Source: Chondrosia reniformis
Lineage: Eukaryota; Porifera; Demospongiae; Chondrillida; Chondrillidae
Direction of reading: 5' to 3'
Length of the DNA: 64,000 nucleotides
NCBI GenBank assembly: GCA_947172415.1
Contig: OX359194.1
Location: forward strand, 4,712,001-4,776,000
The notes under the pieces are model-generated. The model was not told where the DNA came from and did no database searches. It worked only from the letters and a program-made list of their open reading frames with translations. The first letter of the stretch is position 1. Each line of letters opens with the position of its first letter. Shown here in pieces: positions 2,611 through 47,916 of the stretch. The translations under genes were made by a program, and so were the position numbers.

Positions 2611-2612
2611 TA

Positions 2613-5600
2613 GTACATACAACTAGTACATAGAATTAGTAAATACAACCAGCTAATACAGCTAGTACATACAAGTAGTAAATATACCTAGTACATACAC
2701 ACATATATAGTACATATAAATAGTACGTACAACTAGTATATATAACTAGTTCAAACAACTAGTACATACACCCAGTACATACAAACGTAACGAATACATA
2801 TAAGTAGTACATACAACTAGCACATATAAATAGTACACACAACTAGTACATACAACAATAACACAAAACTGGTACATACAATTAGTACATATAACTAGTA
2901 CATACGACTAGTACATACAACTAGTGTCTAGTATATACAATTAGTACCTCCCTAGTACCTAGCATAATTAGGACTAGACCCTACAACTAGTATATACTAC
3001 TAGTACATACAACTAGTACATGCAACTAGTACATATAACTAGTACATACAACTATTACATATGACTAGTACATATACATCTAACTACTACATAAATTTAG
3101 TATATACAACTAGTACAGAAAACTAGTTCACACAAAGAATCAAGTAGTTCATAGGACTAGTTCATTCCTAGTACCTAGTATAACTTGTATTAGAACCTAA
3201 TATTAGTTCAAACATCTAGTACATAGAGCTGATAAATACAATTAGGCAATAGTACATACAACTAGTACATATAACAAGTACATACAACAATCACACACTA
3301 CTTATACATTCAACTAGTACAAAAACTACTACATTCGACTAGTACATACAAATGGTATTGAGTACATACAACTAGTAAATAAAACTAGTGTATACAATTA
3401 GTACACACAAATAGTAAATACAGCTGGTAAATATAACTAGTACATACTACTAGTACATATAACTGGTATATATAACTAGTACTTATAAACAGTACATAAA
3501 ACTAGTTCATAAAACTAGTTCATACAACTAGTACATGCAACAAGTATCTAGTACATACAACTACAACCTACCTAGTACATAGTATAACTGGTACAAGAAT
3601 CAACAACTGGAAAATACACATTGTACATACAACAAGTACTTACAAGTAGGACATACAACTGGAAACTAGTAAATACTACTAGTTTTTAGAAGGAGTATAT
3701 AATACTTTATAGAGAATACAACTTGAATATACATCTAGTATTAAGCTAATTTTAACAATTGGTATATACATACAACTATTACGTTCAACTGGTACATAAC
3801 TTGTACATACAAATAGTATATACAACTAGTACATGCAACTAGTACATGCAACTAGTACATACAACTAGTACATACCAAATAGTACCCACAATTAGTAAAT
3901 ACAATTAGCACATTCAACTAGTCCATACAACTACGACAAACAGCTAGGACATATAACTAATACATACACCTACTACATATAACTAGTAAATACACATACC
4001 TTGTAATTATAAATAGTACATACAACTAGTACATACAACTAGAAAGTAGTATATACAACTAGCTCACAGAATGAGTACATAATACTAGAACACCCAACTT
4101 GAATATTCAACTAGTAAATAGCTACTACACACAACTAGGAAACACAACTAGGACATACAAATAATACATACACCTACCACATATAACTAGAACATACACT
4201 TTTACCTAATAATAATAAATAGGACATACAACTAGTACATACAACTAGTATATAAAACTAGTATCTACAACAAGTAAATTTAACTAGTACTAGTCCATAC
4301 AACTAGTACATACAACTAGTCCTTGCAACTAGTACATAGCTAGTCCATACAACTAGTACTTGCAACTAGTACATATAACTAGTACACACATCTACAACAT
4401 ATAACTAATACATAAAAATATAACTTGTACATATAAATAGTACATAAAGATAGTACATACAAGTAGTTAATACAACTACTAGTACATAGAACGAGTACAT
4501 AAAACTAGGACCTATAACTAATAACACCTACTACATATAATTAGTACATAAATATATAACTAGTACATATGATTAGTGCATCCATATAGTATAGTACATG
4601 CAACTAGAAACTAGGACACACAACTAATATATACACAAAACTAGCACATGTAATTAGTTCATACAACTATTATGTACAAACAACTAGTTCATACAACTAG
4701 TATTTACAATTAGGTCGTCTAACTAGTTCCCAGAACTATTAACTAGTACATATAACCACTACATTCAACTAGTACATACAACTAGGACAAACAACTAGGA
4801 TATATAACCAGTACATATTCCAACTACATATAACTAGTAAATAAACATATACATTGTAATTATAAATAGACATACAACTAGAGCATACAGCATACATGAA
4901 ATAGTTGTACCTATTAATTTTATGAACTAGGTGTATATTAGTTTTATGTATATACCAGATGTATGGACTAGTTAAATGTACTAATTTTTATATATATACT
5001 AGTTGTATGTACTGGTTTCTAGTTCCATTTACTAGTTTCAGGTAATAGTTGCATGTACTATTTGGATGCACTATTTATTTGAACTAGTTATATTTTTATG
5101 TATTTGTTATATGTAGTAGGTGTGGGTATTAGTTATATGTACTAGTTGAAAGTACTAGTTGTATGTACTAGTTGTATGTACTAGAACTAGCTATATTTAC
5201 TAGTTTTAGGTACTCGTTGTATGTTTCAGTTGTATACAATAATTGCATGTGCTAATTGTATTTACAAGTTCTGTGTACTAGTTTTATGTATATAGTAGTT
5301 GTATGTACTAACTATGTACTAGTTGTATGTTCTAGTTGTATGTACTAGATACTAGTTGTATGTACTAGTTGTATTTACTTTTTGCATGTACTATTTATAT
5401 GTGTGTGAACTAGTTATGTGTACTAGTTGTATGCGCTAGCTGTATGTACTAGTTGTATGTACTATTTACATTTACTAGGTATAGGTGTATGAACTAGTTA
5501 TATGTAGTAGGTGTATGTACTAGGTATAATGTCCTAGTTGCATGTACTAGTTGCATTCACTAGTCGCATTTACTAATCATATTTACTAGTTACTAATTTA

Positions 5601-8600
5601 TGAACTAGTTGTACCTACGAATTTAATGTACTACTTGTATGTACTAGTTGTATGTACTAATTGTATGTATATACCAGTTGTATGTACTAGTTAAATGTAC
5701 TAGTTTCTAGTTGTATGGGCTATGTTTATGTACTATTCATATATACTAGTTATATATTTATATATTAGTTATATGTAGTATGTGTGTGTACTTGTTATAT
5801 GTACTAGTTGAAAGTACTAGTTGTATGTGCTAATTGTATGTACTATTTGTAGGTTCTAGAACTAGTTATAGAAGGTACTAAGTAGGAATTAGTTGTTCGT
5901 ACCATTTTAACGTACTAGCTGTATGTACTAGTTCTATGTACTAGTACTAGTTATATTTACTAGATGTTGGTATCGGTTGTATGTAGTAGTTGTATGTACT
6001 AATTGTTTGTACTAGTTGTATGTACTAGGTGAATGTATATACTAATTGTAAGAACTAGCTATGTACTAGTTGTATGTATATACTAGTTTGCTGTTTATGT
6101 AGTAGTTGTATATGCTAGTTTAATGTACTCATACTATGTACAAGTTGTATGTATTAGTTATGTTCAAGTTGTATGTATTAATTATGAACCAGTTGTACGT
6201 ACTAGTTGTATGGATATACTAGTTGTATGTAGTTGCTATGACTAGTTGTATATACAAGTTGTATGTTCTAGTATTATGCACTCGTTTTATAAACTAGGTG
6301 TATGTACTAGTTTCTAGTTGTGTGTACTAGTTGTATGCACTAGTTTTATGTACGTTTTGTATGTACTTGTTGTATGTACTAGGTGTATGTACTATTTTTA
6401 TATACTAGTTATATGTGTATGTACTGGTTATATGTAGTAGTTGTATGTAACAGTTGTATGTACAAGTTGCCTATACTACGTTATGCGCCATCTGTATGTA
6501 CTAGTTGTAGGTTCTAGTGCTAGTTATATTAGGTACTAAGTAGGCATTAGTTGTATATACTAGTTGTTAGTACTACATTAACGTATTAATTGTATGTACT
6601 AGTTCTATGTACTAGTTCTAGTTATATTTACTAGTTGTAGGTACTGGTTGTATGTAGTAGTTTGATGTAGTAGTTGTATGTACTAATTGTATGTATTAGT
6701 TGTATACACTAGTTGTATGTGTGTACTAATTGTATGTTGTAGCTATGTACTAGTTGTATGTACTGGTTTCCTGTTCATGTAGTAGTTGTATATACTAGTT
6801 GAATGTACTAGCTGTATATACTAGTTGTATGTACTCGATACTATTTGTATGTTCCAATCAAATGTAGTATTTATATGTACTAATTATATGTATTAGTTGT
6901 ATGTACTAGTGACTAATTGTTTGCACTAGTTGTATGTACTAGCTTTTTGAAGTAAGTGTAGGTTCTAGTAAAAGTTATACTAGGAACTAGGAAGGAACTC
7001 GTTATATATACTACTTGTTTGTTTGTTTGAACTAGTTTTATGTACTAATTGTATGTACTAGTTGTATGTCACAGTCTCATGTACTAGTTATATGTACTAA
7101 TTACTAGGTGTGTGAACTAGTTGTACCTACTAATTTTATGTACTAGTTGCATGTACTCTTTGTATGTATATACTAGTTTTATGTACTAGTTAAATGTACT
7201 AGTGTTATATAGATACTAGTTGTATGGACTAGTTTCTAGTTGTATGGACTAGTTGTATGTAGTAGGTGTATGTACTAGTTATATGTCCTAGTTGTTTGTA
7301 CTAGTTGTATGTTCTAGTTGAATGTACTAGTTGTATGTACTATTTGTGTGTACTGTTAGGATGTACTAGTTGTATGTACTAGTAGCATGTACTAGTTGTA
7401 TGCAGTAGTTTTATGAACTTGTTCTATTTACATTTACTCGTTGTAGGTACTAGTTATGTGTAGCAGATGTATGTACTATTTGTATCTACAATTTGTATGT
7501 ACTATGTGTATGAACTATTTATAAGTACCAGTTATATGCATGTAGTAATTATATGTTTGTGAACTAGTTATATATACTAGTTGTATGCACTAGCTCTATG
7601 CTCTAGTTGTATGTACTATTTATAATTACAATGTATATGTTTATTTACTAGTTATATGTAGTTGGAATATGTACTGGTTATATATCCTAGTTGTTTGTCC
7701 TAGTTGTATGTACTAGTTGAATGTACTAGTTATATGTACTAGTTACTAGTTGTGTGAACTAGTTGGACGACCTAATTGTAAATACTAGTTGTATGAACTA
7801 GTTGTTTGTACATAATAGTTGTATGAACTAATTACATGTGCTAGTTTTGTGTATATATTAGTTGTGTGTACTAGTTTCTAGTTGCATGTACTATACTATA
7901 TGGATGCACTAATCATATGTACTAGTTATATATTTATGTACTAATTATATGTAGTAGGTGTGTATTAGTTATAGGTCCTAGTTTTATGTACTCGTTCTAT
8001 GTACTAGTAGTTGTATTAACTACTTGTATGTACTATCTTTATGTACTATTTATATGTACAAGTTATATTTTTATGTATTAGTTATATGTTGTAGATGTGT
8101 GTACTAGTTATATGTACTAGTTGCAAGTACTAGATGTATGGACTAGCTATGTACTAGTTGCAAGGACTAGTTGTATGTACTAGTTGTATGGACTAGTACT
8201 AGTTATATTTACTTGTTGTAGATACTAGTTTTTATGTACTAGTTGTATGTACTAGTTGTATGTCCTATTTATTAATATTATGTAAAAGTGGATGTTCTAG
8301 TTATATGTTGTAGGTGTATGTAATATTTGTATGTCCTAGTTGTGTTTCCTAGTTGTGTGTAGTAGTTATTTACTAGTTGAATATTCAAGTTGGATGTTCT
8401 AGTATTATGTACTCATTCTGTGAGCTAGTTGTATATACTACTTTCTAGTTGTATGTACTAGTTGTATGTACTTTTTATAATTACAAGGTATGTGTATTTA
8501 CTAGTTATATGTAGTAGGTGTATGTATTAGTTATATGTCCTAGCTGTTTGTCGTAGTTGTATGGACTATTTGAATGTACTACTTGTATTTACTAGTTGTG

Positions 8601-9060
8601 GGTACTATTTGGTATGTACTAGTTGTATGTACTAGTTATGTACTAGTTGTATATACTATTTGTATGTACAAGTTATGTACCAGTTGAGCGTAATAGTTGT
8701 ATGTATATACCAATTGTTAATATTAGCTTAATACTAGATGTATATTCAAGTTGTATTCTGTATAAGGTATTATATACTCCTTCTAAAAATTAGTAGTATT
8801 TACTAGTTTCCAGTTGTATGTCCTACTTGTACGTACTTGTTGTATGTACAATGTGTATTTACCAGTTGTTGATTCTTGTACCAGTTATACTATGTACTAG
8901 GTAGGTTGTAGTTGTATGTACTAGATACTTGTTGCATGTACTAGTTGTATGAACTAGTTTTATGAACTAGTTTTATGTACTGTTTATAAGTACTAGTTAT
9001 ATGTACCAGTTATATGTACTAGTAGTATGTACTAGTTATATTTACCAGCTGTATTTACTA
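2613..9060. repeat. 13-bp satellite array, segment 2 (strand switch near 4,895)
   Basis: Degenerate 13-mer array. It runs as CATACAACTAGTA to about 4,890, then as TACTAGTTGTATG to the LINE at 9,062. Sub-arrays carry an extra motif, GGTTCTAGTACTAGTTATAC followed by TAGGTACTAGG, for example near 6,500 and 6,965. I see no gene. Confidence 0.95.
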
Positions 9061-9061
9061 T

Positions 9062-10595
9062 TTCAGGATATCAGGAAATCTTATTTAAACTGGGGAGGCC
9101 CATAGCCTGAGGCTACTACAAAGGCACCCAGTACCAAACCATATTTACAATAAATAAATAAATAAAATAAAATTGTCAATTCGGTTGTGTTAATATTGTT
9201 ACATAATACAAATTGTCGCTCATGCATTAGAATATAAACGTTTACATAGTTCCCTAAAATAGTTGAGGTTGAGGTTAGGTGTTGCACGAATGGCTGTAGG
9301 TAGACTGCGCCAGAGGGAAGCACCGGCAAAACTGAATGCCCTCTGTCCGAATGAAGACCTGACTAAGGGAAGATTAAGTTGGGAAGTGGAAGAGGAGCGA
9401 GTGTTATGGTGGCAAGAAAGATAAGAGGAGAGCCGAGACAGATAAGGTGGAGCCTGGGAGGATAGGCTGCGAAACATACACTGAGCCATATGAAGTTTTC
9501 TTCTCAAGGTGAGAGTCGTTAATCCAAGTTCTTGAAGAGCAGCAGTGGAAGAAGAGTCACGCCGCCTATGAAGCACAATCTTGCAACCAAAGTTCAGCAG
9601 CGATTCCAAGCGGCGAGATTCATCTTGAGTACAGCCAGACCAGACGACATCACAATAGTCAAAGTGGGGAAGGATGTATGATTTAAGATAAGTGAGGAGG
9701 AGAGAGTGAGGAAGAAACCAAGAGAGCCTACGAAGAAGGTTGAGACGACAGCTTACTTTTCTACAAATCATGTCAACATGATCACTCCAAGTTAGGGTAT
9801 CGTTTATAAGCACACCAAGATACTTGAACACTCATACCTGATCAACAGTTACACCATCAACAAGAACGTCCAAGCCAGTCTCAATTTTTCTTCTACTAGA
9901 GTGAAAGAGCATACATTTTGTATTGCTTGCATTCAGTTGCAGTCCATTGCTGGCCATCCACAGGCTGGTTGCATCTAGACACTGTTGAAGTGAAGAGTTT
10001 AAAAAAGCAAGATTGCTACTCGTGATGTAGATGGCAGTGTCATCAGCAAAGAGAACAACAGAATCAGCAGGCAGGACTGAGGGCTGGTCATTGATAAAGG
10101 CAGAGAAGAGAGAAGGACCAAGCACAGAGCCTTGGGGAACACCAGTTGTGGGAAAACCAGGAGAGGAGAATGAATCACTGACACGAGTAACCTGGCAACG
10201 ATCGGAAAGATAAGACTTAAACCAAGCAACTGTAGACGAGGAGAAACCAAGTTGGGAAAGCTTAGACAAAAGAAGATCATGGTAACAGTGTCAAAAGCTT
10301 TGGAGATGTCAAGAAACACAACCCCGATGAACTGTCTTCTGTCCAGAGCCTTTTACCAGTCATCCAAGCAATGAAGAAGAAGCGTTTGGGTAGAATGCTT
10401 GGGCCGAAATCCAGATTTATAAGGGAAGAGAAGGTCGTTTTGTATGAGGTGAGAAGAAAACCGCTCCTGGACACACCTTTCTAGAAGTTTACTGCAGATT
10501 GGAAGCAGAGAGGTGGGTTGGTAATTCGTGGGGGAGACACGATCACCGCCTTTGTGGGGTGGCTTAACCCAAGCACACTTCAGGATTCAGGAAAG
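9062..10595 (-). mobile_element. 5'-truncated LINE (CR1/L2-type RT fragment)
   Basis: The fragment keeps the C-terminal half of a LINE reverse-transcriptase ORF and a short 3' UTR on the minus strand. The 3' end (about 9,062-9,219) holds an ATTT-rich stretch (9,150-9,172) and a GC-richer terminal segment. The 5' truncation lies near 10,590. The 5' flank reads TTCAGGATTCAGGAAA and the 3' flank TTCAGGATATCAGGAAA, a possible target duplication that is not part of the 13-mer array. CR1/L2 placement is inferred from the RT motifs only. Confidence 0.8.
9220..10590 (-). pseudogene. LINE reverse transcriptase, C-terminal part, broken
   Basis: This is the reverse transcriptase of a non-LTR retrotransposon, which copies element RNA at a nicked chromosomal target. 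In order on the minus strand are the SPTNYQPTSLLP block (about 10,520), GFRPKHST (about 10,410), the catalytic-Asp segment FLDISKAFDTV (about 10,318), GVPQGSVLGPSLF (about 10,150) and the FADDTAIY active site (about 10,050). After these comes the thumb/connection region FKYLGVLINDTLTW, and the frame ends at 9,220. The frame is broken in several places: a TAA after CLDDW near 10,353, a shift near 10,270-10,320, and an in-frame TGA at 9,832-9,834 between VDQV and VFKYLGV, where LINEs normally read through. The endonuclease and upstream parts are absent. The copy cannot be active. Confidence 0.85.
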
Positions 10596-11857: not shown

Positions 11858-12165
11858 TAGTTCTTTGTAATAGATACCAACCAGTTGTATGTAGAATATG
11901 TATGCACTAGTTCTTTGTACTAGCAATATACTAGTTTTATGAACTAGTATAATGTACTAGTTGTATGTACTAGTTGTATGTATATACCAGATGTGTGTAC
12001 TAGTTAAATGTACTAATTTTATATATATATACTAGTTGTGTGTACTAGTTTCTAGTTGTATTTACTAGTTGTATCTACTAGATACTAGTTGTATGTACTA
12101 GTTGTAAGTACTAGTTATATTTACTATTTGTATGTACTATTTATTTGTGTTTACTAGTTATATGT
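11858..12165 (+). repeat. 13-bp satellite array, segment 4
   Basis: TACTAGTTGTATG-orientation units between the MITE and the retrozyme. The last bases, TAGTTATATGTA (12,155-12,166), recur at the far side of the retrozyme. Confidence 0.9.
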
Positions 12166-12520
12166 ATGGAAAAAAATAGGGGAACTTTAAGATCTAAAGC
12201 TGATCTTAAAGCATCGATGTCATCATCATCATCATTTAACTCTGGGTATTACCCCTGCCCACTCATGTCCCCTGAGGAGCGCAATGAGCTAATGGGCGGA
12301 ACGGAAGTTCGTTTGATGGGAACCAGAGTCTCCCCCTAGCCACTCAAAAAGATGGTCGAGCCATAGACAGCTGTTTCGTCCTTATTAGGACTCATCAGTA
12401 TGGCATACGATGGAAGTTAGAGTGGCTAGTCTGCTAATAAGTACTCCCAGAAGCTAATAAGCTTGTGGTTTCCTTATCAGCAGATAAGGGATACAGCCAA
12501 AAGTGTGGCTGACCACTAGT
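12166..12520 (-). mobile_element. Retrozyme unit 1 (355 bp)
   Basis: First of two direct 355-bp repeats; the period is exact, since ATGGAAAAAA at 12,166 recurs at 12,521. Each unit contains one canonical type I hammerhead ribozyme on the minus strand, so the RNA-sense strand is minus. Short tandem units with one hammerhead each, no protein and no RT define animal retrozymes. Their transcripts self-cleave into unit-length RNAs that can be circularised and are thought to be moved in trans by PLE reverse transcriptase. A 64-codon open frame here is repeated in unit 2 but has no domain and runs antisense to the ribozyme RNA; I do not call it a gene. Confidence 0.85.
12356..12410 (-). ncRNA. Hammerhead ribozyme, type I (retrozyme unit 1)
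   Basis: Same 55-nt motif as at 12,947-13,001 but on the minus strand. It has the core CTGATGA, stem II GTCC/GGAC with loop TAATAA, then GAAA, a tiny stem III (AC/GU, loop AGCU) and the cleavage triplet GUC. Stem I is GCCATA/TATGGC and extends through TCG/CGA. Predicted cleavage falls between 12,366 and 12,365 on the minus strand. No core position is changed. Confidence 0.93.
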
Positions 12521-12886
12521 ATGGAAAAAAATAGGGGAACTTTAAGATCTAAAGCTGATCTTAAAGCATCGATGTCATCATCATCATCATTTAACTCTGG
12601 GTATTACCCCTGCCCACTCATGTCCCCTGAGGAGCGCAATGAGCGAATGGGCGGAACCGAAGTTTGTTTGATGGGAACCAGAGTCTCCCCCTAGCCACTC
12701 AAAAAGATGGTCGAGCCATAGACAGCTGTTTCGTCCTTATTAGGACTCATCAGTATGGCATACGATGGAAGTCAGAGTGGCTAGTCTGCTAATAAGTACT
12801 CCCAGAAGCTAAAAAGCTTGTGGTTTCCTTAACAGCAGATAAGGGATACAGCCAAAAGTGTGGCTGACCACTAGTATGGAAAAAAA
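12521..12886 (-). mobile_element. Retrozyme unit 2 (355 bp plus A-tract junction)
   Basis: Second direct repeat, differing from unit 1 at a handful of positions (for example GAGCGAATGG against GAGCTAATGG, and GCTAAAAAGC against GCTAATAAGC). It ends at an A-tract (ATGGAAAAAAAAA, 12,875-12,887) where the sequence turns into an inverted copy. The hammerhead is again on the minus strand. Confidence 0.85.
12711..12765 (-). ncRNA. Hammerhead ribozyme, type I (retrozyme unit 2)
   Basis: Identical in all core and stem positions to the motif in unit 1, displaced by exactly 355 bp. Tandem ribozymes at this spacing would release 355-nt monomers from a longer minus-strand transcript. Confidence 0.93.
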
Positions 12887-13140
12887 AACCACAAGCTTTT
12901 TAGCTTCTGGGAGTACTTATTAGCAGACTAGCCACTCTAACTTCCATCGTATGCCATACTGATGAGTCCTAATAAGGACGAAACAGCTGTCTATGGCTCG
13001 ACCATCTTTTTGAGTGGCTAGGGGGAGACTCTGGTTCCCATCAAGCGAACTTCGGTTCCGCCCATTAGCTCATTGCGCTCCTCAGGGGACATGAGTGGGC
13101 AGGGGTAATACCCAGAGTTAAATGATGATGATGATGACAT
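12887..13140 (+). mobile_element. Retrozyme, inverted partial unit
   Basis: About 253 bp that are the reverse complement of 12,572-12,827, joined head to head to unit 2 through a 60-bp spacer. It includes a full hammerhead on the plus strand. The insertion ends at 13,140 and is followed by AGTTATATGT, which also precedes unit 1 (12,156-12,165). This is a likely target duplication, though the array itself contains similar words. Confidence 0.85.
12947..13001 (+). ncRNA. Hammerhead ribozyme, type I (inverted retrozyme copy)
   Basis: Stem I is TCG (12,947-12,949) and GCCATA (12,953-12,958) pairing with TATGGC (12,992-12,997) and CGA (12,999-13,001), with an internal TAT/T loop. CTGATGA is at 12,959-12,965. 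Stem II is GTCC/GGAC (12,966-12,969 and 12,976-12,979) with loop TAATAA. GAAA is at 12,980-12,983. Stem III is A-C/G-U around AGCT, and cleavage follows C12,991. The stem-I internal loop and loop II sit where natural hammerheads make their tertiary contact. ACAGCTGT around stem III is palindromic, so a dimeric hammerhead could form a longer stem III. Confidence 0.95.
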
Positions 13141-14213
13141 AGTTATATGTACTAGTTGTATGCGCTAGCTGTATGTACTAATTGTATGTACTATTTACAT
13201 TTACTAGGTAAAGGTGTATGTACTAGTTATATGTCCTAGTTGTATGTACTAGTTGAATGCACTAGTTGTATGTACTAGTTGTATGTACTAGTCACATGTA
13301 CTAATTATATTTACTAGTTACTAATTTTATGATCTAGTTGTACCCACGAATTTACATGTACTGGTTATATGTACTAGTTAATAGTTGTGTGAATTAGTTG
13401 AATGACCTAATTGTAAATACTAGTTGTAAATACTATTTGTGTGAACTTGTTGTTTGTATATAATAGTTGTATGTACTAATTTCTAGTTGCATGTACTAGT
13501 TTTATGTACTAGTTATATATACTATATGGATGCACTATTCATATGTTCTAGTTATATATTTATGTCCTAATTATATGTAGTAGGTATTTACTAGTTATAG
13601 GTCCTAGTTTTATTTACTCGTTCTATGTACTAGGAGTTGTATGAACTACTTGTATGTACTATGTTTATGTACTATTTATATGTACTATTTATATTTTTAT
13701 GTATCAGTTATTTGTTGTAGATGTGTGTACTAGTTATATATACTAATTGCAAAGTACATAGCTAGTACATACAACTAGTATATACATACAACTAGTACAT
13801 ACAATTGTGTACTAGTTGTATGTACTAGTTGTATGTATATACTAGTTGTATGTACTAGCTATGTACTGGTTGTATGTTCTAGTTGTATGTACTAGTTGTA
13901 TGTACAAGTGGTAGGTTCTTGTACTAGTTATACTAGGGACTAAGAAGGTACTAGTTCTATGTAGTAGATACTAGTTGTATGTACTAGTTGTATATACTAG
14001 TCTCATGTACTAGTTATATGTACTAGTTACTAGTTGTATGAACTAGTTGTACCTATTAATTTTATATACTAGTTGTATGTACTAGTTGAATGTATATACC
14101 AGTTGTATGTATATACCAATTGTATGTGCTAGTGTCTAGTTGTATTTACTAGTTTTTTGTACTAGTTGTGTGGACTATGTGGATGCACGATTTGTTTGAA
14201 CTAGTTACATTTT
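13141..14213. repeat. 13-bp satellite array, segment 5
   Basis: Mostly in TACTAGTTGTATG orientation, with a short inverted patch at about 13,751-13,805. A further GGTTCTTGTACTAGTTATAC variant occurs near 13,915. No gene is seen. Confidence 0.92.
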
Positions 14214-29334: not shown

Positions 29335-29724
29335 CATGAAAAATCTAAGATACCATTTTCCTACATGCTATATGCCTATTCTCTAAAAAGAGCCTATAGG
29401 GGAACTAAACCTAAAGAGAGCTTTAGATGAAGATACAGGAGTCTTTTCTTCCTTCTTTTCCCTTCTTTCATCTTCTTCTCCACTGGGTCAGACAGCCGTT
29501 TCTGGGAATTCCACCTTCATCAGTGATCCTGGGAGTCTTTGTCTTTTTCTTTATCAGTGATCCTGGGAGTCTTTGTCTTTTTCTTTATCTGATCTTCTGT
29601 GAATCCTTGGCTCTCTATGCTAAATCTAGGGGCCTTACATACACTATTTTGGCGCCAAAAGTTAAATAAGGTGTTAACTAAGACACATGATGAAATTTAA
29701 TTTTATGAAAGGAATGTAGGTCCA
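29335..29724 (-). mobile_element. 3' pLTR of the Naiad-type PLE
   Basis: A 390-bp copy of the repeat at 32,760-33,151, in direct orientation relative to it. The two differ at few positions. Each contains a tandem duplication of about 35 bp (AAGACAAAGACTCCCAGGAT and neighbours) just before the hammerhead, creating a second, incomplete CTGAT start. A GGCGCC word lies near 29,652. Confidence 0.85.
29486..29529 (-). ncRNA. Hammerhead ribozyme motif (Naiad 3' pLTR)
   Basis: Same motif as at 15,656-15,700: CTGATGA, GAAAC, stem III AC/GU with loop GGCT, triplet GTC, stem I GG-a-TCA/TGACC. Here stem II has lost one G (GG against CCC), so it should be the weakest of the three copies. Confidence 0.65.
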
Positions 29725-29817
29725 ATTAACTTTTATGAATTAATTATAAATCTATTAGTAAACTTGCTTGTACAGGTTAAACAGACTCAGCATAACTATA
29801 GACAAAAGTAGGACATA
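29725..29817 (-). other. Naiad-type PLE 3' untranslated region
   Basis: 93 bp of AT-rich sequence between the end of the polyprotein frame and the 3' pLTR, with no other feature. Confidence 0.6.
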
Positions 29818-32631
29818 TTACGTAAGTCTACCCTTAGGTCTTCTAGTAGTAACATTTCTTTGGAGGTGGGGTAACACAATATGGGGTAACACAAGACAGT
29901 CCTTAAGCATACTAGCTACTTTTTGCTTATACTTGATTCTAACTAGAGGCTGCCGGGATAGGAAGGTTTTAAAGGTTGATTTTAGCTTAAAGTATTTGTA
30001 ACCCTGCTTAATAAGCCTATTGCATAACTGCAAACTTTTAGCCTGAAAACTGGAGAAGTCACTACATATCCTGGAATACCTAATTAGTTGTGAAATAAAG
30101 ACACCATAGGCTGGGGTATTAGGAATATTACTATCTAAATGGGGGAAATTTACTATATCAAAGTTAAAGTCCTCTCGCTTATCATATACTTTAGTGATAA
30201 ATTGATTGTTAGTAATGGTTATATCTAAGTCTAAAAAGGGGGATTTTTTAGGGCTAGTATTTGTCTTTTTAAGAATAAGTTCTTTGGGGTAAATATCACT
30301 AATTGACAGTTCAAAATCCTTGTTGTTAATACATAAAAGGTCATCAATATACCTATAAGTATTGGAAAATTTAATAGCTAGGGTGATGTTATCCTTAAGT
30401 AGTCCTTTCATAAACTCATACTCAGAGGCAAACAGAAAAAGATTAGCAACTACAGGGGCACAGTCAGTACCCATAGGGATACCTACACATTGCTTAAATA
30501 CAGAACCGTCTACACATACATAAATGTTGTCAATAAGGTAATTAAAGAGCTCTACTAAATGAACAGCTGTGACTGCATTATTGGAGACATTGTTAGACCA
30601 AAAGGCTTTATCATGACAGACTTCTATATATTGGGACTTCCTACAGGTATAGGCACTATGAATAAGGTTAGTAATCTTATCTTTAAGTAGGTTATGGGGG
30701 ATCGCTGTATATAATGTAGAAAACTTAAAACTAGCTAGCTGGGTTTTTCTAGCGGGTATAGACCTAAGACTATCTAAGACTTCTAGTGAGTTTTCTACTA
30801 TCCAAAAGGCATTAACACCAGTATTCCTATATATACCTAGGCAGTATTCTCTAAAATGTTTGAGAATTAGTCTGAGTGCCGAATTTAGAAATCTAGAAAG
30901 GGGTTTGGTAGTACATTTGTGAGAAGCAGCTATGAATCTGTAGTTGTAAGGGTTCTTATGTAGCTTAGGCATCCAGTAAAAAGAGGGAAGGTTACATAAG
31001 TGGAGTTCTTCATTAATAATTTGTCTATAGTAGGACTTACATATAAATATTATATTATTAGAGGCCTTATCGGCAGGGGCTATAATATAATTATCATGTA
31101 GGTCTGCTAAGAATTTCTTAATTTTAGGGCAAGTAAGGGTCTTCTTGGCTACTGAGGATTTGGTATACAATTTAGACAGCTTAGAGATCCTATCATTAAT
31201 TTTCTTAAGTACAGTATTTTCCCACTCACTAAATACAGAAATAGATACATTTTCTCTACGGGCCCAGGTAATCTTATATTTTCTAAGACCTTCCTTACAC
31301 ATTTTTAAAGCAGTTACCCAATTAAAGTTATTAGGTTCTCTAAATTTTGGTCCTTTCTTAAGAAGTTTTCTAAGTTTTGGGTTCCTAACAATACGTAGGT
31401 CACCTGTTAAAACATGGCCTAGGGGCTTGTAAATGAAGGGAGACTTGTGACACTCACATGGTTCTGGTTTTCTAAAGACATCTGACTTAGAGGCTTGTGA
31501 AAAGTTAAAGATTTGAGGTCCTATTGGTTGGGTATACTTATATACTACACATGGGGGCTCTTTGTTTTGTATAAAGGGTGGGACAGTTTCTAACACTAAC
31601 TTTTGGTTTAAGATACCTGAGAGGCCTATTTTTTCTACACCTTTATTGTGAAACACGATTTTAAGAAACCCTACTGGACTTGTCGTTTTCGTTGGGTGTT
31701 TGGGAAGGCTGGCTGAAGCGCGTTCTTTAAGAACGTCTTTAATCATTAGCATAAGTCTAAGTGGAAAAGGTGTTTCTGGGGTATTGATGAGACATTGTAC
31801 CGAGTTTAACAAACGATGAAGGTGTCAACCTTGTAATGCAAAAGTATCGCGTTTAAGTTTGGCCAGAAAGCCCACTTTCTTGTAAAATGGTAGTCGTTCT
31901 TTGAGCCATTCAGGGTCGAAGGTAGCGTTATTACTACTGCCTGTCGATTTTAGATTGGAGCGCCGATGCCGTCTTTTATGAGATAAGCGATTAAAAAAGG
32001 TTCCATACGATGATTTCTTCGAAATATTGCCAACGCCTTTAATGTTATCGTTAAGTCCATATGGGTAAATAGAGCAGAGTTTCTTGTACCAGAACGCTTC
32101 TCTCAGTAGTCTGAGGCTAGTAGAATTAGGTGTCTCAGGTATCTGTTCTATGGGCATAATCAAGGCATCATCAAAACTATGGTTATCAGAATTAAAGTGA
32201 TTGTAAAGATACAGTGGCTTAAAACCTTTGGTACTAGTCCTATGGTTGTTCATTCTACTCCTAAGCATCTGAGAGGTTTCTCCTACATACTGAACATCAC
32301 ATTGTTTACAAGTAATAAGATACACAACATTCCTACTCTGGCATCCTAGGGGACCACAAGGGCTACGGACTTGATAGGTCCTGCCAGTAACTGAACTCTT
32401 AAAAGTAGGGCCAGTAACTAAAGAGGGACATGTTTTACACCGCTTATTGCTACACTTCTTAACTACTGAGGGGCTAGCTTGCCCACCAGTAGGCACCCCT
32501 CTACCTACAGATGGGGGAGAGTTAGCTAACGTTTCATCACCAGGCACCCTACCTTTACCTAATGACGGGGAGCTTGTTAACCCGGGCGACCTCCCAGCCG
32601 GTCTCCTATCTCTATACTTTGTACTTGTCAT
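29818..32631 (-). CDS. Naiad-type PLE polyprotein: N-terminal GIY-YIG nuclease + reverse transcriptase, one in-frame UGA
   Basis: A 938-codon frame on the minus strand, interrupted only by a UGA at 31,827-31,825 (codon 269). Residues 1-59 are low-complexity and basic. A Cys cluster (C60, C65, C68; C92, C97) precedes the GIY-YIG nuclease: VVYLI 102-106, YVGETS 115-120, R126 and E178. After the UGA the RT carries YWMPKLHK (about 552), FSTLYTAIPH (about 636), VGIPMGTDCAPVVANL (about 716) and the catalytic YIDD (about 761-764). The endonuclease preceding the RT is the permuted order of the Naiad/Chlamys PLE clade, opposite to the PLEs at 19.4 and 43.2 kb. The RT half has no ATG near the UGA (its first open codon is TTG), so the two halves were one protein. 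The spacing between NEEL and LPSFYW looks some 40 residues shorter than usual, an inferred deletion. Likely a recent but inactive copy. Confidence 0.88.
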
Positions 32632-32759
32632 GATTGGAAATGGGTCAAGGACTAGACAAGCTAGTCCACAAAGACTTAACCTATTACATGTAGCCGGGGC
32701 TATTTAAAGGCAACAATAGCTCAACAGCCACCAGGGACTAACATGAGGCTAAGTAAACA
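32632..32759 (-). other. Naiad-type PLE leader between 5' pLTR and ORF
   Basis: 128 bp between the pLTR and the ATG at 32,631. No feature other than TATTTAAAG (32,701), which is within the leader and need not be a promoter. Confidence 0.5.
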
Positions 32760-33151
32760 CATGAAAAATCTAAGATACCATTTTCCTACATGCTATATGC
32801 CTATTCTGTAAAAAGAGCCTATAGGGGAACTAAACCTAAAGAGAACTTTAGATGAAGATACAGGAGTCTTTTCTTCCTTCTTTTCCCTTCTTTCATCTTC
32901 TTCTCCACTGGGTCAGACAGCCGTTTCTGGGAATTCCACCCTTCATCAGTGATCCTGGGAGTCTTTGTCTTTTTCTTTATCAGTGATCCTGGGAGTCTTT
33001 GTCTTTTTCTTTATCTTGATCTTCTGTGAATCCTTGGCTCTCTATGCTAAATCTAGGGGCCTTATATAGACTATTTTGGCGCCAAAAGTTAAATAAGGTG
33101 TTAATTAAGACACATGATGAAATTTAATTTTATGAAAGGAATGTAGGTCCA
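32760..33151 (-). mobile_element. 5' pLTR of the Naiad-type PLE
   Basis: A 392-bp direct repeat of 29,335-29,724 sharing the ends CATGAAAAATCTAAG and AATGTAGGTCCA. It contains the hammerhead motif and the 35-bp internal duplication. No target duplication is evident outside the two pLTRs. Confidence 0.85.
32911..32955 (-). ncRNA. Hammerhead ribozyme motif (Naiad 5' pLTR)
   Basis: Minus strand; identical in design to the solo pLTR copy, with full GGG/CCC stem II, GAAAC, stem III AC-GGCT-GU and GTC cleavage triplet. Cleavage would fall in the 5' pLTR of the element RNA. Confidence 0.75.
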
Positions 33152-43149: not shown

Positions 43150-43265
43150 TTCCATTTACTATAATAGAATAAGGATTCCTTATAACTGCGTCGAACTTAT
43201 GTTTGGGATGGTACATCCTTCGACTTTTGAGCATTTAAAAACGCAGTTGGTTTTTTCAATTCTTG

Positions 43266-43302
43266 GTCAAACGTTTCGACCCTGGGGGTCTTCCTCAGTG
43301 TC
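43266..43302 (-). ncRNA. Hammerhead-like motif, pLTR of PLE copy A (inverted arm)
   Basis: Same as at 45,205-45,241 except that stem I reads GACA against TGAC, breaking one pair. The core CTGAGGA, stem II and GAAAC are intact. Confidence 0.6.
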
Positions 43303-43331
43303 TGATGGTTGAGTGGAAGAATTGCCTCTAT

Positions 43332-45170
43332 TTATAGAGGATTTTTCCCACCATTCCCACTTCCTGTCATGTGACCCTCAGCAGAATGAGAAAAACAGGA
43401 AGTATGAATATTAAATCGTCTCCAGGCTTGATGTAACACAATGCCTTGATCTAAATTCATTCTCACCTGACTCCTCTGGATCCTGATGGCTTCTTTGACC
43501 CTTCTCCTTTGCCAGTGGGTTTCCCTGTCTGTAATCTTGGCCTTGTCCCAAGCAATTGAGTGGCCAGTCTTGAGGGAGTGAACAGCTATACCGTTGTTCA
43601 CATCCCCCATCCTGACTGCTCGCTTGTGTTCTGCCAATCTCACTTTCAGGGTCCTTCCAGTTTCGCCAATGTAGACTGCAGAACACTCAGAGCAAGGAAT
43701 TAGGTAAACTACACCCTTGATATCCATAGGTGGTTGTGGCTGTTTTGGTTTGGATAAAATGGTTCTCAGTGATCTCTGCTTGGAGAAAATGGTCTGGATA
43801 CCCATTTTTCTACAGCTTTTATCGATCATCTCACTGAGTCCCTTTATATATGGAATAAAGAGTTTGTGTTTACACTCATCCTCACTCCCCTTAGTCTGCC
43901 TTCTCCTGTTGAGCAGTCTGTGAGCCTCCCATTTAGGGTATCCATTAGCTTGAAGTACTCCTTCCAGGTGCTCCTTTTCTTTTTCCAAGCTACTGGAGTT
44001 TGGTCCACAGATCTTTTCGGCTCTGTCTTTGAGACACAGTGCGATACCAGTTTTTACCCTAGGGTGGTGATGAGAGGTAAAGTGAAGGTACCTGTCTGTG
44101 TGTGTTGGTTTCCTATACACAAATGTGTCCAAACTTCCCATGCACTTCTTTACTTGCACATCCAGGAAGGGTAAGGAACCATTGGTCTCCTTCTCCATGG
44201 TAAATTCGATGTTGCGATGTCTTCCATTGAGGAAACTCAAGAAGTCCTCCAGCTGCTCGTCACCATGATTCCAGATGACAAATGTGTCATCCACATACCT
44301 CAACCACAACTTAGGCCTTATCACAGCAGCACGAAGAGCTTGTATTTCGAATTCCTCCATGAAGATGTTCGCTACCACCGGGGAGAGAGGAGATCCCATG
44401 GCTGCCCCTTCCTTCTGCTCAAAGAACTCATCACTGTACAGGAAGTACGTTGTCCTGAGACAGAGTTCCGTAAGATCCGCAATGCATGGTGGATACATCC
44501 AAGGGTGTCCGTTGCTCCAAGTTAGGGTCCTGCGCAAGTCGTCTCCTGATGATCTGTAGAGATAGATCAATGGGTACTTTGGTAAATAGGCTCTTTACAT
44601 CGAAACTGATCAACTTATCTTTGGTGTTCACATCCATTCCCCTGATCTTCTTGACAAAGTCATGAGAATTCCGCACAAAGTGAGAAGTTTTCCCCCATAG
44701 TGGTGACAATACCCCTGCCAGGTACCTGGAAAGGTTGTAGGTAGGGGAATTAATGGAGGAAACAATTGGTCTCAAGGGTACACTTGCCTTGTGGATTTTT
44801 GGTAATCCGTAGAGCTGAGGTGTGGAGCTGTTTTGGTTCTGAACCTTCTTCCTTAGATCAGAGGGGAGTTTGCCTTTTTTCTCAAGTGACCTTAGAACTT
44901 CAGTTACCTTCCGTTCTATCTTCATTGTGGGGTTTCTCTTAATGGCTTGATAACTCGTATCATCCAAGAGTGCCCTTATCTTCTGGTCATAGTCCTTCCT
45001 ATCCATAAGGACAGTGGCATTCCCTTTATCCGCTGGAAGGATGATGGTTTCAGGATCAGACCTAAGCTCCTTGATTGCTACTTGCTGACTTTTGGTCAGG
45101 TTGGAGCATGGGGCCTCAGCTTTGGCTAGGCAGTGTTGTACCTCACTTCTGAGTTTCTCACCGAGTGTTC
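43332..45170 (-). pseudogene. PLE RT-endonuclease, inverted 5'-truncated copy
   Basis: Minus-strand duplicate of 45,934-47,772, encoding the RT from LGEKLRSEVQHCLAKAEA through to the GIY-YIG domain. It starts abruptly at the junction 45,170/45,171. It has the same 4-base disruption as the other arm, near 44,485 (ACC-atgc-ATTGCG on the sense strand). Motifs: LPKIHKA, FDVKSLFTK, GSPLSPVVANIFMEEFE, YVDDTF, VYLIPCSECSAVYIGETGR. It lacks the N-terminus and initiation region. Confidence 0.9.
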
Positions 45171-45206
45171 TATAAATAGAGGCAATTCTTCCACTCAACC
45201 ATCAGT
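45171..45206 (+). promoter_or_regulatory. TATA box and initiator in the PLE pLTR
   Basis: TATAAATA at 45,171-45,178 is followed about 31 bp later by TCAGT (45,202-45,206), the arthropod-style initiator. This would start transcription at the edge of the hammerhead. The pair is repeated in the 3' pLTR (47,768), and family B has TATAAATG at the same distance from its motif. Confidence 0.6.
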
Positions 45207-45241
45207 CACTGAGGAAGACCCCCAGGGTCGAAACGTTTGAC
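45205..45241 (+). ncRNA. Hammerhead-like motif, 5' pLTR of PLE copy A
   Basis: Stem I is GTCA/TGAC (45,205-45,208 and 45,238-45,241), the core CTGAGGA (45,209-45,215). One extra A is followed by stem II GACCC/GGGTC around CCA, GAAA (45,230-45,233), then C-GTT. Position 7 of the core is free in hammerheads, so all required bases are present. The extra A before stem II and a stem III of only AC/GT without a loop suggest weak or dimer-dependent cleavage after GTT. Family B shows a G-U substitution in stem I (GUCA/UGGC) that keeps pairing. Confidence 0.65.
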
Positions 45242-45290
45242 CAAGAATTGAAAAAACCAACTGCGTTTTTAAACGCTCAAAAGTCGAAGG

Positions 45291-47772
45291 ATGTACCATC
45301 CCAAAGATAAGTTCGACGCAGTTATAAGGAATCCTTATTCTATTATCGATTGCTCAGAGCGAGCTACTATTTCATTATGCTACGAGCTTAGAAACATCAA
45401 GGAACGTATTGCCCGTCATCGCAACCATCTTGTTTTCTTTCTCAGATGTAGGGACAAGAAGATTGTACCTAAGGGACTATGAGTTCAGTTTCAGATCACT
45501 ACGGAAAAGGCCAAACGGCTCGCGTTTCGCACGTCAATGGCCTTAGTACGTGAACGTATCGGCGCCACCCACTGGACTCTCCATCGCTCTAGAACTCATT
45601 TAGCATCCTGTGAGGAGTCCTTAAAGATGTTAGTCAATGATGAAACCTTCTATAAATTAGAAGAATGGAGTGACAGTATAGCTGAAAGGACCTTCCAGGA
45701 GACTAAAAAGAGACAGAGGGAGAAGTTCCAGGCCCTGTTGGAAAAAACATCCAGGAAAGATAAGTTCACACCTATTGACATTAAGAAGGTGGTTACCAAT
45801 CTTAGCAAAAAAGAATTGACAACTCATCAGACAAATGTCTTATCTCTAGGACTAAACTTTATACCTACTCCATCTTCACTTCCACAGGAGGACATCATCA
45901 CTGGAACTGAGACTCTGGCCCGAACCCTTCCAGGAACACTCGGTGAGAAACTCAGAGGTGAGGTACAACACTGCCTAGCTAAAGCTGAGGCCCCATGCTC
46001 CAACCTGACCAAAAGTCAGCAAGTAGCAATCAAGGAGCTTAGGTCTGATCCTGAAACCATCATCCTTCCAGCGGATAAAGGGAATGCCACTGTCCTTATG
46101 GATAGGAAGGACTATGACCAGAAGATAAGGGCACTCTTGGATGATACGAGTTATCAAGCCATTAAGAGAAACCCCACAATGAAGATAGAACGGAAGGTAA
46201 CTGAAGTTCTAAGGTCACTTGAGAAAAAAGGCAAACTCCCCTCTGATCTAAGGAAGAAGGTTCAGAACCAAAACAGCTCCACACCTCAGCTCTACGGATT
46301 ACCAAAAATCCACAAGGCAAGTGTACCCTTGAGACCAATTGTTTCCTCCATTAATTCCCCTACCTACAACCTTTCCAGGTACCTGGCAGGGGTATTGTCA
46401 CCACTATGGGGGAAAACTTCTCACTTTGTGCGGAATTCTCATGACTTTGTCAAGAAGATCAGGGGAATGGATGTGAACACCAAAGATAAGTTGATCAGTT
46501 TCGATGTAAAGAGCCTATTTACCAAAGTACCCATTGATCTATCTCTACAGATCATCAGGAGACGACTTGCGCAGGACCCTAACTTGGAGCAACGGACACC
46601 CTTGGATGTATCCACCATGCATTGCGGATCTTACGGAACTCTGTCTCAGGACAACGTACTTCCTGTACAGTGATGAGTTCTTTGAGCAGAAGGAAGGGGC
46701 AGCCATGGGATCTCCTCTCTCCCCGGTGGTAGCGAACATCTTCATGGAGGAATTCGAAATACAAGCTCTTCGTGCTGCTGTGATAAGGCCTAAGTTGTGG
46801 TTGAGGTATGTGGATGACACATTTGTCATCTGGAATCATGGTGACGAGCAGCTGGAGGACTTCTTGAGTTTCCTCAATGGAAGACATCGCAACATCGAAT
46901 TTACCATGGAGAAGGAGACCAATGGTTCCTTACCCTTCCTGGATGTGCAAGTAAAGAAGTGCATGGGAAGTTTGGACACATTTGTGTATAGGAAACCAAC
47001 ACACACAGACAGGTACCTTCACTTTACCTCTCATCACCACCCTAGGGTAAAAACTGGTATCGCACTGTGTCTCAAAGACAGAGCCGAAAAGATCTGTGGA
47101 CCAAACTCCAGTAGCTTGGAAAAAGAAAAGGAGCACCTGGAAGGAGTACTTCAAGCTAATGGATACCCTAAATGGGAGGCTCACAGACTGCTCAACAGGA
47201 GAAGGCAGACTAAGGGGAGTGAGGATGAGTGTAAACACAAACTCTTTATTCCATATATAAAGGGACTCAGTGAGATGATCGATAAAAGCTGTAGAAAAAT
47301 GGGTATCCAGACCATTTTCTCCAAGCAGAGATCACTGAGAACCATTTTATCCAAACCAAAACAGCCACAACCACCTATGGATATCAAGGGTGTAGTTTAC
47401 CTAATTCCTTGCTCTGAGTGTTCTGCAGTCTACATTGGCGAAACTGGAAGGACCCTGAAAGTGAGATTGGCAGAACACAAGCGAGCAGTCAGGATGGGGG
47501 ATGTGAACAACGGTATAGCTGTTCACTCCCTCAAGACTGGCCACTCAATTGCTTGGGACAAGGCCAAGATTACAGACAGGGAAACCCACTGGCAAAGGAG
47601 AAGGGTCAAAGAAGCCATCAGGATCCAGAGGAGTCAGGTGAGAATGAATTTAGATCAAGGCATTGTGTTACATCAAGCCTGGAGACGATTTAATATTCAT
47701 ACTTCCTGTTTTTCTCATTCTGCTGAGGGTCACATGACAGGAAGTGGGAATGGCGGGAAAAATCCTCTATAA
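45291..47772 (+). pseudogene. PLE reverse transcriptase + C-terminal GIY-YIG endonuclease, near-intact
   Basis: From the ATG in the pLTR (MYHPKDKFDAVIRNPYSI) the frame encodes about 826 residues: a basic N-terminal domain, the RT with PQLYGLPKIHKA (about 335), FDVKSLFTKVP (about 405), GSPLSPVVANIFMEEFE (about 470) and catalytic YVDD (about 505), a linker, and the GIY-YIG endonuclease VYLIPCSECSAVYIGETGR (about 702) ending at 47,772. Two lesions: an in-frame TGA at 45,480-45,482, where PLEs usually carry Arg (PKGL-stop-VQ), and a 4-base insertion (ATGC) near 46,613 that shifts the frame between DVST and IADLTEL. Catalytic residues of both enzymes are intact, so this is a very young but probably inactive copy. 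The domain order (RT then nuclease) is that of the canonical Penelope/Neptune/Poseidon lineage. Confidence 0.9.
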
Positions 47773-47905
47773 ATAGAGGCAATTCTTCCACTCAACCATC
47801 AGTCACTGAGGAAGACCCCCAGGGTCGAAACGTTTGACCAAGAAGTGAAAAAAACCAACTGCGTTTTTAAATGCTCAAAAGTCGAAGGATGTACCATCCC
47901 AAAGA
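47768..47905 (+). mobile_element. 3' pLTR of PLE copy A
   Basis: Repeats the 5' pLTR from TATAAATAGAGGCAATTC to GTACCATCCCAAAG. It ends at the 11-bp target duplication. Confidence 0.85.
47802..47838 (+). ncRNA. Hammerhead-like motif, 3' pLTR of PLE copy A
   Basis: Identical in core and stems to the motif at 45,205-45,241. The two sense motifs lie 2,597 bp apart, so cleavage at both would release one unit-length element RNA. Confidence 0.65.
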
Positions 47906-47916
47906 TTCCATTTACT

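What the first reader, a model, noticed from the sequence alone, without database searches (positions are those of the whole stretch)
12166..13140. A hammerhead retrozyme with three canonical, identical type I ribozymes
Two direct 355-bp units and an inverted partial unit each carry a textbook hammerhead (12,356-12,410, 12,711-12,765, 12,947-13,001). Seen directly: all core bases, a 6-bp stem I with a 3-bp extension, GTCC/GGAC stem II, a minimal stem III and a GUC cleavage site. Known: animal retrozymes are short tandem units of this kind whose RNAs self-cleave and can circularise. Inference: this locus makes 355-nt, possibly circular, RNA.
Basis: partly seen in the sequence, partly recalled or inferred. 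Interest (0 to 1): 0.85.

Follow-up and report, generated by a model that had tools for sequence, protein, structure and literature searches.

The report
Sponge jumping gene with self-cutting RNA
This is a small non-coding jumping element of a sea sponge whose RNA carries a self-cutting ribozyme, and the way its copies sit in the genome suggests that a Penelope-type retrotransposon pastes it in from both ends at once.

Summary
Two 355-bp direct units and one inverted 255-262-nt partial unit each carry an identical type I hammerhead above Rfam's threshold; the ribozyme strand is minus for the direct units, plus for the inverted one. The window is from the sponge Chondrosia reniformis. It is a retrozyme with many dispersed copies and a second, 64% similar family. 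The ribozyme is among the least diverged stretches of the unit and shows compensatory changes.
39 of 57 insertions judged independent join an antisense and a sense copy; 70 of their 78 outer ends lie at two sites; one end carries the 44-55-nt 'tail' and the other lacks it in 27 of 31. Flanking duplications far exceed chance. A canonical Penelope-like element here, also in the window, inserts the same way (10 of 11). Best reading: a retrozyme inserted by Penelope-type, double-ended target-primed reverse transcription. A circular RNA template is inferred; no RNA data were available. New members of a known kind, with an insertion signature that I did not find reported for retrozymes.

The parts
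12166..13140 (.). whole retrozyme insertion (borders uncertain by 1-2 nt where the flanking repeat overlaps the element)
12166..12520 (-). sense unit 1, 355 nt (ribozyme sense = minus strand); its outer end at 12166 carries the tail
12521..12875 (-). sense unit 2, 98.3% identical to unit 1
12886..13140 (+). inverted partial copy (unit positions 50-304 in ribozyme sense); its outer end at 13140 lacks the tail
12360..12404 (-). type I hammerhead ribozyme 1; predicted cleavage 12366|12365
   Evidence: 37.1 bits
12715..12759 (-). type I hammerhead ribozyme 2; predicted cleavage 12721|12720
   Evidence: 37.1 bits
12953..12997 (+). type I hammerhead ribozyme 3 in the inverted copy; predicted cleavage 12991|12992
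   Evidence: 37.1 bits
12171..12225 (-). tail of unit 1 (unit positions 296-350) between the two sites at which insertions end; holds a strong hairpin
   Evidence: z -4.0
12155..12166 (.). left copy of the flanking direct repeat TAGTTATATGTA (candidate target-site duplication)
   Evidence: weak alone because the flanks are repetitive
13140..13151 (.). right copy of the flanking direct repeat TAGTTATATGTA
43161..47910 (.). canonical Penelope-like element (PLE1: RT, C-terminal GIY-YIG) with the same double-ended build: antisense 43161-45170, sense 45169-47909, one tailed and one untailed end, TCCATTTACT at both flanks (by eye); candidate source of the machinery

Best explanation
A non-autonomous, non-LTR retrozyme family of the sponge Chondrosia reniformis. 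Proposed steps: the unit is transcribed (inferred); the hammerhead cuts the transcript into 355-nt units (motif shown, activity inferred); the ends are ligated into a circle, by analogy with other animals (inferred). A Penelope-type reverse transcriptase with a GIY-YIG endonuclease then cuts both target strands about 8-15 nt apart. The 3' end of each strand primes cDNA synthesis on retrozyme RNA, starting at one of two internal sites 44-55 nt apart. The cDNAs run from about 0.1 to 2.3 lengths round the template and join head to head. The result is antisense copy + sense copy between target-site duplications, usually with the tail at one end only. The two-site, double-ended, one-tail geometry and the duplications are shown in the DNA; the enzyme's identity is inferred from the same geometry in PLE1 of this genome.
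For: Three hammerheads above threshold. 40 scored of 1137 first-look candidates gave 100 matches in the genome. Mismatch rate 1.6% in the 45-nt ribozyme, 0.8% in its core, 5.5% elsewhere (71 segments, 27 loci, without the loci fetched for their ribozyme; with them 1.9, 0.8 and 6.4%); 3 of 310 windows (1 of 310) are lower, and they overlap it. 48 distinct motifs: 92.4% of cells paired, 30 cells changed on both sides against 7.9 in shuffles. Junction repeats of 8 nt or more: 17 of 35 (family 1) and 9 of 22 (family 2), against 1.1% and 1.7% of mismatched flank pairs. Double-ended: 24 of 35 and 15 of 22. Outer ends: 70 of 78 in windows that cover 9-10% of the unit; tailed/untailed ends alternate in 27 of 31, P 1.5e-5. 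PLE1 alternates in 10 of 11 (9 of 10, plus the window copy); neighbouring PLE1 frames are head-to-head 17 times, tail-to-tail 2 times. No PLE frame between units at any of 21 loci. Template continuity: all 57 insertions hold a segment that crosses the cleavage site, 34 of 96 runs read through a unit join, 33 exceed one unit, 2 of 96 inner ends lie within 10 nt of the cut.
Against: No RNA was examined: transcription, cleavage and circularity are untested. Linear multimers could also give read-through across unit joins. 18 of 57 insertions show one strand only, and 3 of these 18 have a junction repeat of 8 nt or more; 16 of the 39 double-ended ones lack one. 4 of 31 insertions have two ends of the same kind, 8 of 78 ends are off the sites, and the 8 insertions with such an end are not in the 31. 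The number of stem pairs with changes on both sides (3) is not above shuffles (3.3), as most such changes separate the two families. Tails of retrozymes and PLE1 are not alike, and a tail hairpin beats shuffles only in family 1 (z -4.0; family 2 -0.58; PLE1 -0.33). Sampling was not random: family-1 loci were the best matches; most family-2 loci were picked because one search showed two or more pieces; eight of the ten PLE1 insertions were picked with a tailed end already known. Duplicates were removed by eye.
Confidence: 0.72

Rival explanations
1. The 355-bp units are terminal repeats (pLTRs) of an autonomous Penelope-like element, left as solo or partial copies.
For: PLE pLTRs occur in tandem and inverted (PMC3846280, passages) and can carry hammerheads (PMC11167929). 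PLE1 solo pLTR insertions with the same build exist (L095, L096). The retrozyme tail shares AGTTCCCCTAT with the tail of the second PLE of the window. PLE fragments lie in the flanks of several loci.
Against: None of 21 loci, with at least 3.8 kb on each side of the main element, has a PLE frame between units. The unit has no match better than E 0.5 to the pLTR stretches of PLE1 and PLE2 tested. Its hammerhead has the 2-bp stem III with tetraloop, unlike the minimal PLE1 motif. Only these PLE families were compared.
Confidence: 0.1
2. A retrozyme mobilised by a LINE through ordinary target-primed reverse transcription with twin priming, which also makes 5' inversions and long target-site duplications.
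For: Long duplications and inverted 5' segments occur with LINEs (recalled); the window holds LINE-like RT frames (by eye; no Pfam match for 9220-9831).
Against: In LINE twin priming the outer end of the inverted segment lies at varying internal positions (recalled). Here both outer ends fall on the same two sites (70 of 78) and alternate (27 of 31), as in PLE1.
Confidence: 0.12
3. Head-to-head copies arise by self-priming (snap-back) of one cDNA, as proposed earlier for Penelope elements, not by two separately primed cDNAs.
For: Proposed for bdelloid Penelope inverted structures (PMC3846280, passage).
Against: A snap-back joins arms at the same unit position. Inner ends of the two arms lie within 15 nt of each other in only 2 of 39 double-ended insertions. 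The single tail per insertion is also not predicted.
Confidence: 0.06
4. A MITE-like DNA transposon with terminal inverted repeats that happens to contain a hammerhead.
For: Inverted arms and about 10-nt duplications.
Against: Arm lengths, inner junctions and total length vary widely (214-1331 nt aligned); 34 of 96 arms read through unit joins in tandem; the two ends differ by the tail; the ribozyme is conserved with compensatory changes.
Confidence: 0.02

Closest known systems
Metazoan non-LTR retrozymes (Cervera and de la Pena 2020, PMC7229834; coral, mussel, axolotl)
   Same: Type I hammerhead, unit of about 170-400 nt (355 and 352 here), G+C below 50%, dimers, no long coding frame, target-site duplications longer than 4 nt, PLEs in the same genome.
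   Different: Described there as tandem repeats from dimers up to large multimers. Here most insertions examined are head-to-head with two-site ends and a single tail, and the longest run seen is about 2.3 units.
Penelope-like elements with C-terminal GIY-YIG endonuclease (PLE1 here; Adineta vaga Penelope, PMC3846280; Anolis Poseidon, PMC11167929)
   Same: Inverted plus direct partial copies, duplications of about 8-12 nt, optional tail at one end, internal start of reverse transcription at two sites and both target strands cut and extended in vitro (Anolis).
   Different: The retrozyme has no long coding frame, has a hammerhead with a 2-bp stem III and tetraloop instead of the minimal one, and shares no significant sequence with the PLE1 pLTR.
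PLE pLTR-flanked host gene (NRPS) moved in trans in A. vaga (PMC3846280, passages)
   Same: A non-PLE sequence inserted in trans with PLE-type ends.
   Different: There the pLTRs themselves are present; in the retrozymes no pLTR of PLE1 or PLE2 was found.

Membership tests
Metazoan non-LTR retrozyme | type I hammerhead motif | tested here: met
   RF00163 at 37.1 bits, threshold 34, three times; 30 cells changed on both sides against 7.9 in shuffles; loop-loop contacts were not examined
Metazoan non-LTR retrozyme | unit of about 170-400 nt, G+C below 50% | tested here: met
   355 nt, 45%; family 2 352 nt, 43%
Metazoan non-LTR retrozyme | non-coding | tested here: met
   no frame of 120 aa or more in 12166-13140; shorter frames were not examined
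Metazoan non-LTR retrozyme | tandem copies, dimers to large multimers | tested here: inconclusive
   dimers and partial tandems present, but the longest single run is about 2.3 units; no large multimer among the loci fetched
Metazoan non-LTR retrozyme | dispersed copies with target-site duplications longer than 4 nt | tested here: met
   junction repeats of 8-15 nt in 26 of 57, against 1.1% and 1.7% of mismatched pairs
Metazoan non-LTR retrozyme | no LTR, primer-binding site or polypurine tract | not tested
   no search was made for a primer-binding site or polypurine tract
Metazoan non-LTR retrozyme | self-cleavage and accumulation as linear and circular RNA | not testable with these tools
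   no RNA-seq or bench data in reach
Penelope-like element | RT (with GIY-YIG) frame between pLTRs | tested here: not met
   none of 21 loci has one between units
Penelope-type insertion signature (mechanism, not membership) | inverted copy with outward 3' ends, target-site duplication, tail at one end | tested here: met
   39 of 57 double-ended, 23 of these 39 with a junction repeat of 8 nt or more; 27 of 31 with one tail; PLE1 10 of 11 in the same genome
MITE / DNA transposon | fixed terminal inverted repeats and constant length | tested here: not met
   inner junctions and lengths vary widely

The most novel reading that the evidence does not exclude
Animal retrozymes are satellites of Penelope-like elements: an RT/endonuclease dimer cuts both target strands and uses one and the same circular RNA for both. 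The first cDNA starts 3' of the tail and covers it, which forces the second to start 5' of the tail. Hence one tail per insertion, and single-ended insertions about one circumference long. The retrozyme circle would thus record, in genomic DNA, how Penelope reverse transcription starts.
Probability: 0.3. Interest if true: 0.8.

Novelty: new variant of a known kind. Interest (0 to 1): 0.6.

Why it matters
Which enzyme moves animal retrozymes is open: the literature names PLEs as likely candidates from co-occurrence, tandem copies and shared ribozymes (PMC7229834; passage of PMC7761336). Insertions that share two end sites, the one-tail pattern and duplication length with a PLE of the same genome would be the first structural link that I found, and they make the question testable with a purified PLE protein and retrozyme RNA. 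They also give a short, non-coding model substrate for the unsolved Penelope insertion pathway, and extend retrozymes to a sponge (no sponge report among the 6 papers listed or the 10 listed of 516).

Tried and rejected
Rejected: pLTR of a known PLE (no PLE frame between units, no sequence match). Rejected: PLE2, the GIY-YIG-first element at 29335-33151, as the obvious partner. It shares AGTTCCCCTAT in its tail, and the GCTGTC end of its ribozyme, with the retrozyme, but the fetched PLE2 copies look like simple 5'-truncated insertions that end ATTTTT|CAT, with a CATG-like repeat at the other side in several (by eye), unlike the double-ended retrozymes. Rejected: a tail hairpin as the common recognition feature; it beats shuffles in family 1 only. 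Rejected: snap-back self-priming. An exact search for the ribozyme in viral contigs found nothing. ARAGORN found no tRNA in the window.

Unresolved: inner ends cluster at unit positions 168-192 and 88-100 in family 1 and 98-122 in family 2, close to the two edges of the ribozyme, not at the cleavage site; a pause at structure is possible but untested. Inner ends called at position 1-4 in family 1 are uncertain by about 10 nt, because aligned segments break at the unit join. L028 and L052, counted as sense only, have weak antisense matches in the left flank (scores 27 and 29; 34 of 35 control flanks score 20 or less, one 54), so some sense-only insertions may have short or decayed antisense arms.

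Rows dropped before counts: twelve family-1 loci whose flanks repeat those of another locus (L017, L018, L019, L021, L022, L024, L026, L030, L031, L038 against L025; L039 against L037; L043 against L040), judged by eye. Of the 40 clusters that I read, one (C12:2925158-2925814) was not fetched. L001-L008 were not used, since larger loci cover the same places. In L014 a 13-nt duplication visible by eye was missed by the script and counted as none.

Full report
1. What is there. Rfam's Hammerhead_1 model matches three times above threshold (37.1 bits, threshold 34) at 12404-12360 (-), 12759-12715 (-) and 12953-12997 (+), with identical 45-mers. They sit in two 355-bp direct units, 12166-12520 and 12521-12875 (98% alike), and an inverted partial copy that reaches 13140 (98% complementary). 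In ribozyme sense (minus strand) the locus reads: antisense partial copy, sense unit, sense unit. The core is complete, the cleavage triplet is GUC (after unit position 155), stem I has 6 bp plus a 3-bp extension, and stem III has 2 bp and a self-complementary AGCU loop. The whole unit folded as a circle keeps stems I and II; imposing the full ribozyme costs 5.2 kcal/mol in family 1 and 4.2 in family 2. The 56-nt motif folds better than 198 of 200 shuffles.

2. Where it is. The window is G000:C6:4712001-4776000 of a 117.38-Mb assembly in 15 contigs. The lengths of its contigs C1-C14, as printed, match the published chromosome table of the kidney sponge Chondrosia reniformis to rounding for 13 of 14 chromosomes; chromosome 4 differs by 0.01 Mb (passages of PMC12181767; abstract).

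3. A family, not a single locus. The 355-bp unit gave 100 matches from 40 scored of 1137 first-look candidates. The Rfam model gave 65 matches, 51 above threshold, from 73 scored of 11921 candidates. These are lower bounds. A second family (unit 351-352 bp, reference copy from L069) is 64% similar to the first over positions 30-239; a query from L051 gave 64 matches from 40 scored of 500 candidates. Without the loci fetched for their ribozyme, 71 aligned segments of 27 loci have 1.6% mismatches in the 45-nt ribozyme, 0.8% in its core and 5.5% elsewhere; 3 of 310 windows are lower and overlap it. With those loci the rates are 1.9, 0.8 and 6.4%, and 1 of 310 is lower. Among 48 distinct motifs, 92.4% of cells pair, and 30 cells are changed on both sides against 7.9 in shuffles; the number of pairs with such changes (3) is not above shuffles (3.3), because most of them separate the two families. 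The motifs were selected for near-complete cores, so their core conservation is not evidence.

4. The inverted piece is systematic. I examined 46 family-1 loci (the window, L009-L047, L049, L050, L052-L055) and 22 family-2 loci (L048, L051, L067-L086). After removal of 12 loci with repeated flanks there remain 35 and 22 insertions. Of these, 24 and 15 contain both an antisense and a sense run; 11 and 7 show one strand only. Family-2 loci were mostly picked because one search showed two or more pieces, so that share is not representative. In the double-ended ones the outer ends lie near unit positions 295 or 350-355 (family 1) and 307 or 351 (family 2): 70 of 78 ends, in windows that cover 9.9% and 9.1% of the unit. 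Where both ends are on these sites, one end has the 44-55-nt tail and the other lacks it in 27 of 31 (16 of 20 and 11 of 11); independence predicts half, P 1.5e-5. Inner junctions vary widely.

5. Target-site duplications. Matches of 8-15 nt at the two junctions occur in 17 of 35 and 9 of 22 insertions, against 1.1% and 1.7% when left and right flanks of different insertions are paired; a few nt of each match may belong to the element. By eye: AATAACTTATAA in L027, AAGAATTAAATGTG in L046, GACATATGTATC in L084, TTAAGATTAG in L071. The window copy's own 10-12-nt repeat is weak evidence, since it lies in 13-bp repeats. Such a match is present in 23 of 39 double-ended and 3 of 18 one-strand insertions.

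6. A Penelope-like element of the same genome does the same. PLE1 (RVT_1 and C-terminal GIY-YIG) lies in the window at 43161-47910 as an antisense plus a sense copy, 99.7% identical over 1970 nt, with one tailed and one untailed end. In ten further insertions whose two ends I read, nine have one end at pLTR position 177-178 and the other at 138-144, and one (C9) has both at 141. Eight of the ten were picked with a tailed end already seen (for two of these the untailed end too), so this sample speaks against two-tailed insertions but says little about untailed pairs. By eye, duplications of about 9-12 nt flank several. Neighbouring PLE1 frames within 6 kb are head-to-head 17 times and tail-to-tail 2 times (from the 104 matches; 100 of 1665 candidates scored). 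This build is known for Penelope elements: inverted pLTR, 9-bp duplication and a 31-bp tail at one of the inverted pLTRs (PMC3846280, passages). For Anolis Poseidon, two internal start sites and cutting and extension of both target strands were shown in vitro (PMC11167929, parts 1 and 2 of 4 read).

7. Template. All 57 insertions contain a segment that runs across the cleavage site. Of 96 runs, 34 read through a unit join and 33 are longer than one unit; 2 of 96 inner ends lie within 10 nt of the cut. So the templates were not simply the cleaved linear monomers, which would stop the enzyme there. Thirteen of 18 one-strand insertions are 0.96-1.19 units long (one of them, L085, is in two separate pieces), which suits one turn of a circle. 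Uncleaved linear multimers remain possible.

8. Mechanism and its limits. I propose double-ended target-primed reverse transcription by a PLE1-type enzyme on retrozyme RNA, probably circular. Shown: motif, families, ends, one-tail pattern, duplications, the same geometry in PLE1. Inferred: transcription, cleavage, ligation, the enzyme. What the enzyme recognises is unknown: the tails share no significant sequence with PLE1, and only the family-1 tail folds better than shuffles.

9. Against the known. It meets most of the tested features of metazoan non-LTR retrozymes (PMC7229834, parts 1-4 of 6 read); large tandem arrays were not seen. It is not a PLE, having no RT frame between units. PLEs were already named as likely partners of retrozymes, on co-occurrence and shared features (PMC7229834; passage of PMC7761336), and 15-bp duplications were reported for Nematostella repeats (passage of PMC4918200). 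My searches (listed of found: 16 of 16, 15 of 28, 12 of 19, 6 of 6, 12 of 31, 10 of 516) listed no paper that, by title and start of abstract, deals with retrozymes in sponges or with head-to-head, one-tailed retrozyme insertions. The library lacks most subscription journals, and supplementary files were not read.

Noticed in passing
window 29335-33151 (-): A Penelope-like element with the GIY-YIG frame upstream of the RT-like frame (permuted order; recalled as Naiad/Chlamys-like; no Pfam match for the RT frame), direct pLTRs 98% alike, a hammerhead-like motif, ends ATTTTT|CAT and a CATG-like flanking repeat in several copies.
   Followed up: partly
window, e.g. 259-2102, 2611-4843, 5097-9060, 13140-14094, 37600-42176: Large stretches of degenerate 13-bp repeats (TAGTTGTATGTAC or its complement), in both orientations in blocks; eleven retrozyme loci share similar flanks of this kind and look like one insertion amplified with the repeat (by eye).
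   Followed up: no
L013, outer end of the sense copies: The retrozyme's sense end abuts an antisense copy of the PLE2 tail (by eye), either an insertion next to PLE2 or a chimaeric insertion.
   Followed up: no
family-1 and family-2 loci, inner junctions: Inner ends of the cDNAs cluster just outside both edges of the hammerhead (168-192 and 88-100 in family 1; 98-122 in family 2) and avoid the cleavage site.
   Followed up: partly
L015, L028, L040, L054, L075, L079 and others: One-strand insertions are mostly about one unit long and several start near the untailed site, as if the enzyme stopped after one turn of a circle.
   Followed up: partly
L095, L096: Short PLE1 insertions that match only pLTR sequence, with the same antisense-sense, one-tail build as the retrozymes.
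   Followed up: partly
window 42201-42400: A run of 200 N inside the repeat block, probably an assembly gap.
   Followed up: no
window 13767-13855: A stretch in the 13-bp repeats scores as several animal microRNA precursors on both strands, all far below their thresholds; likely chance from the palindromic repeat.
   Followed up: no
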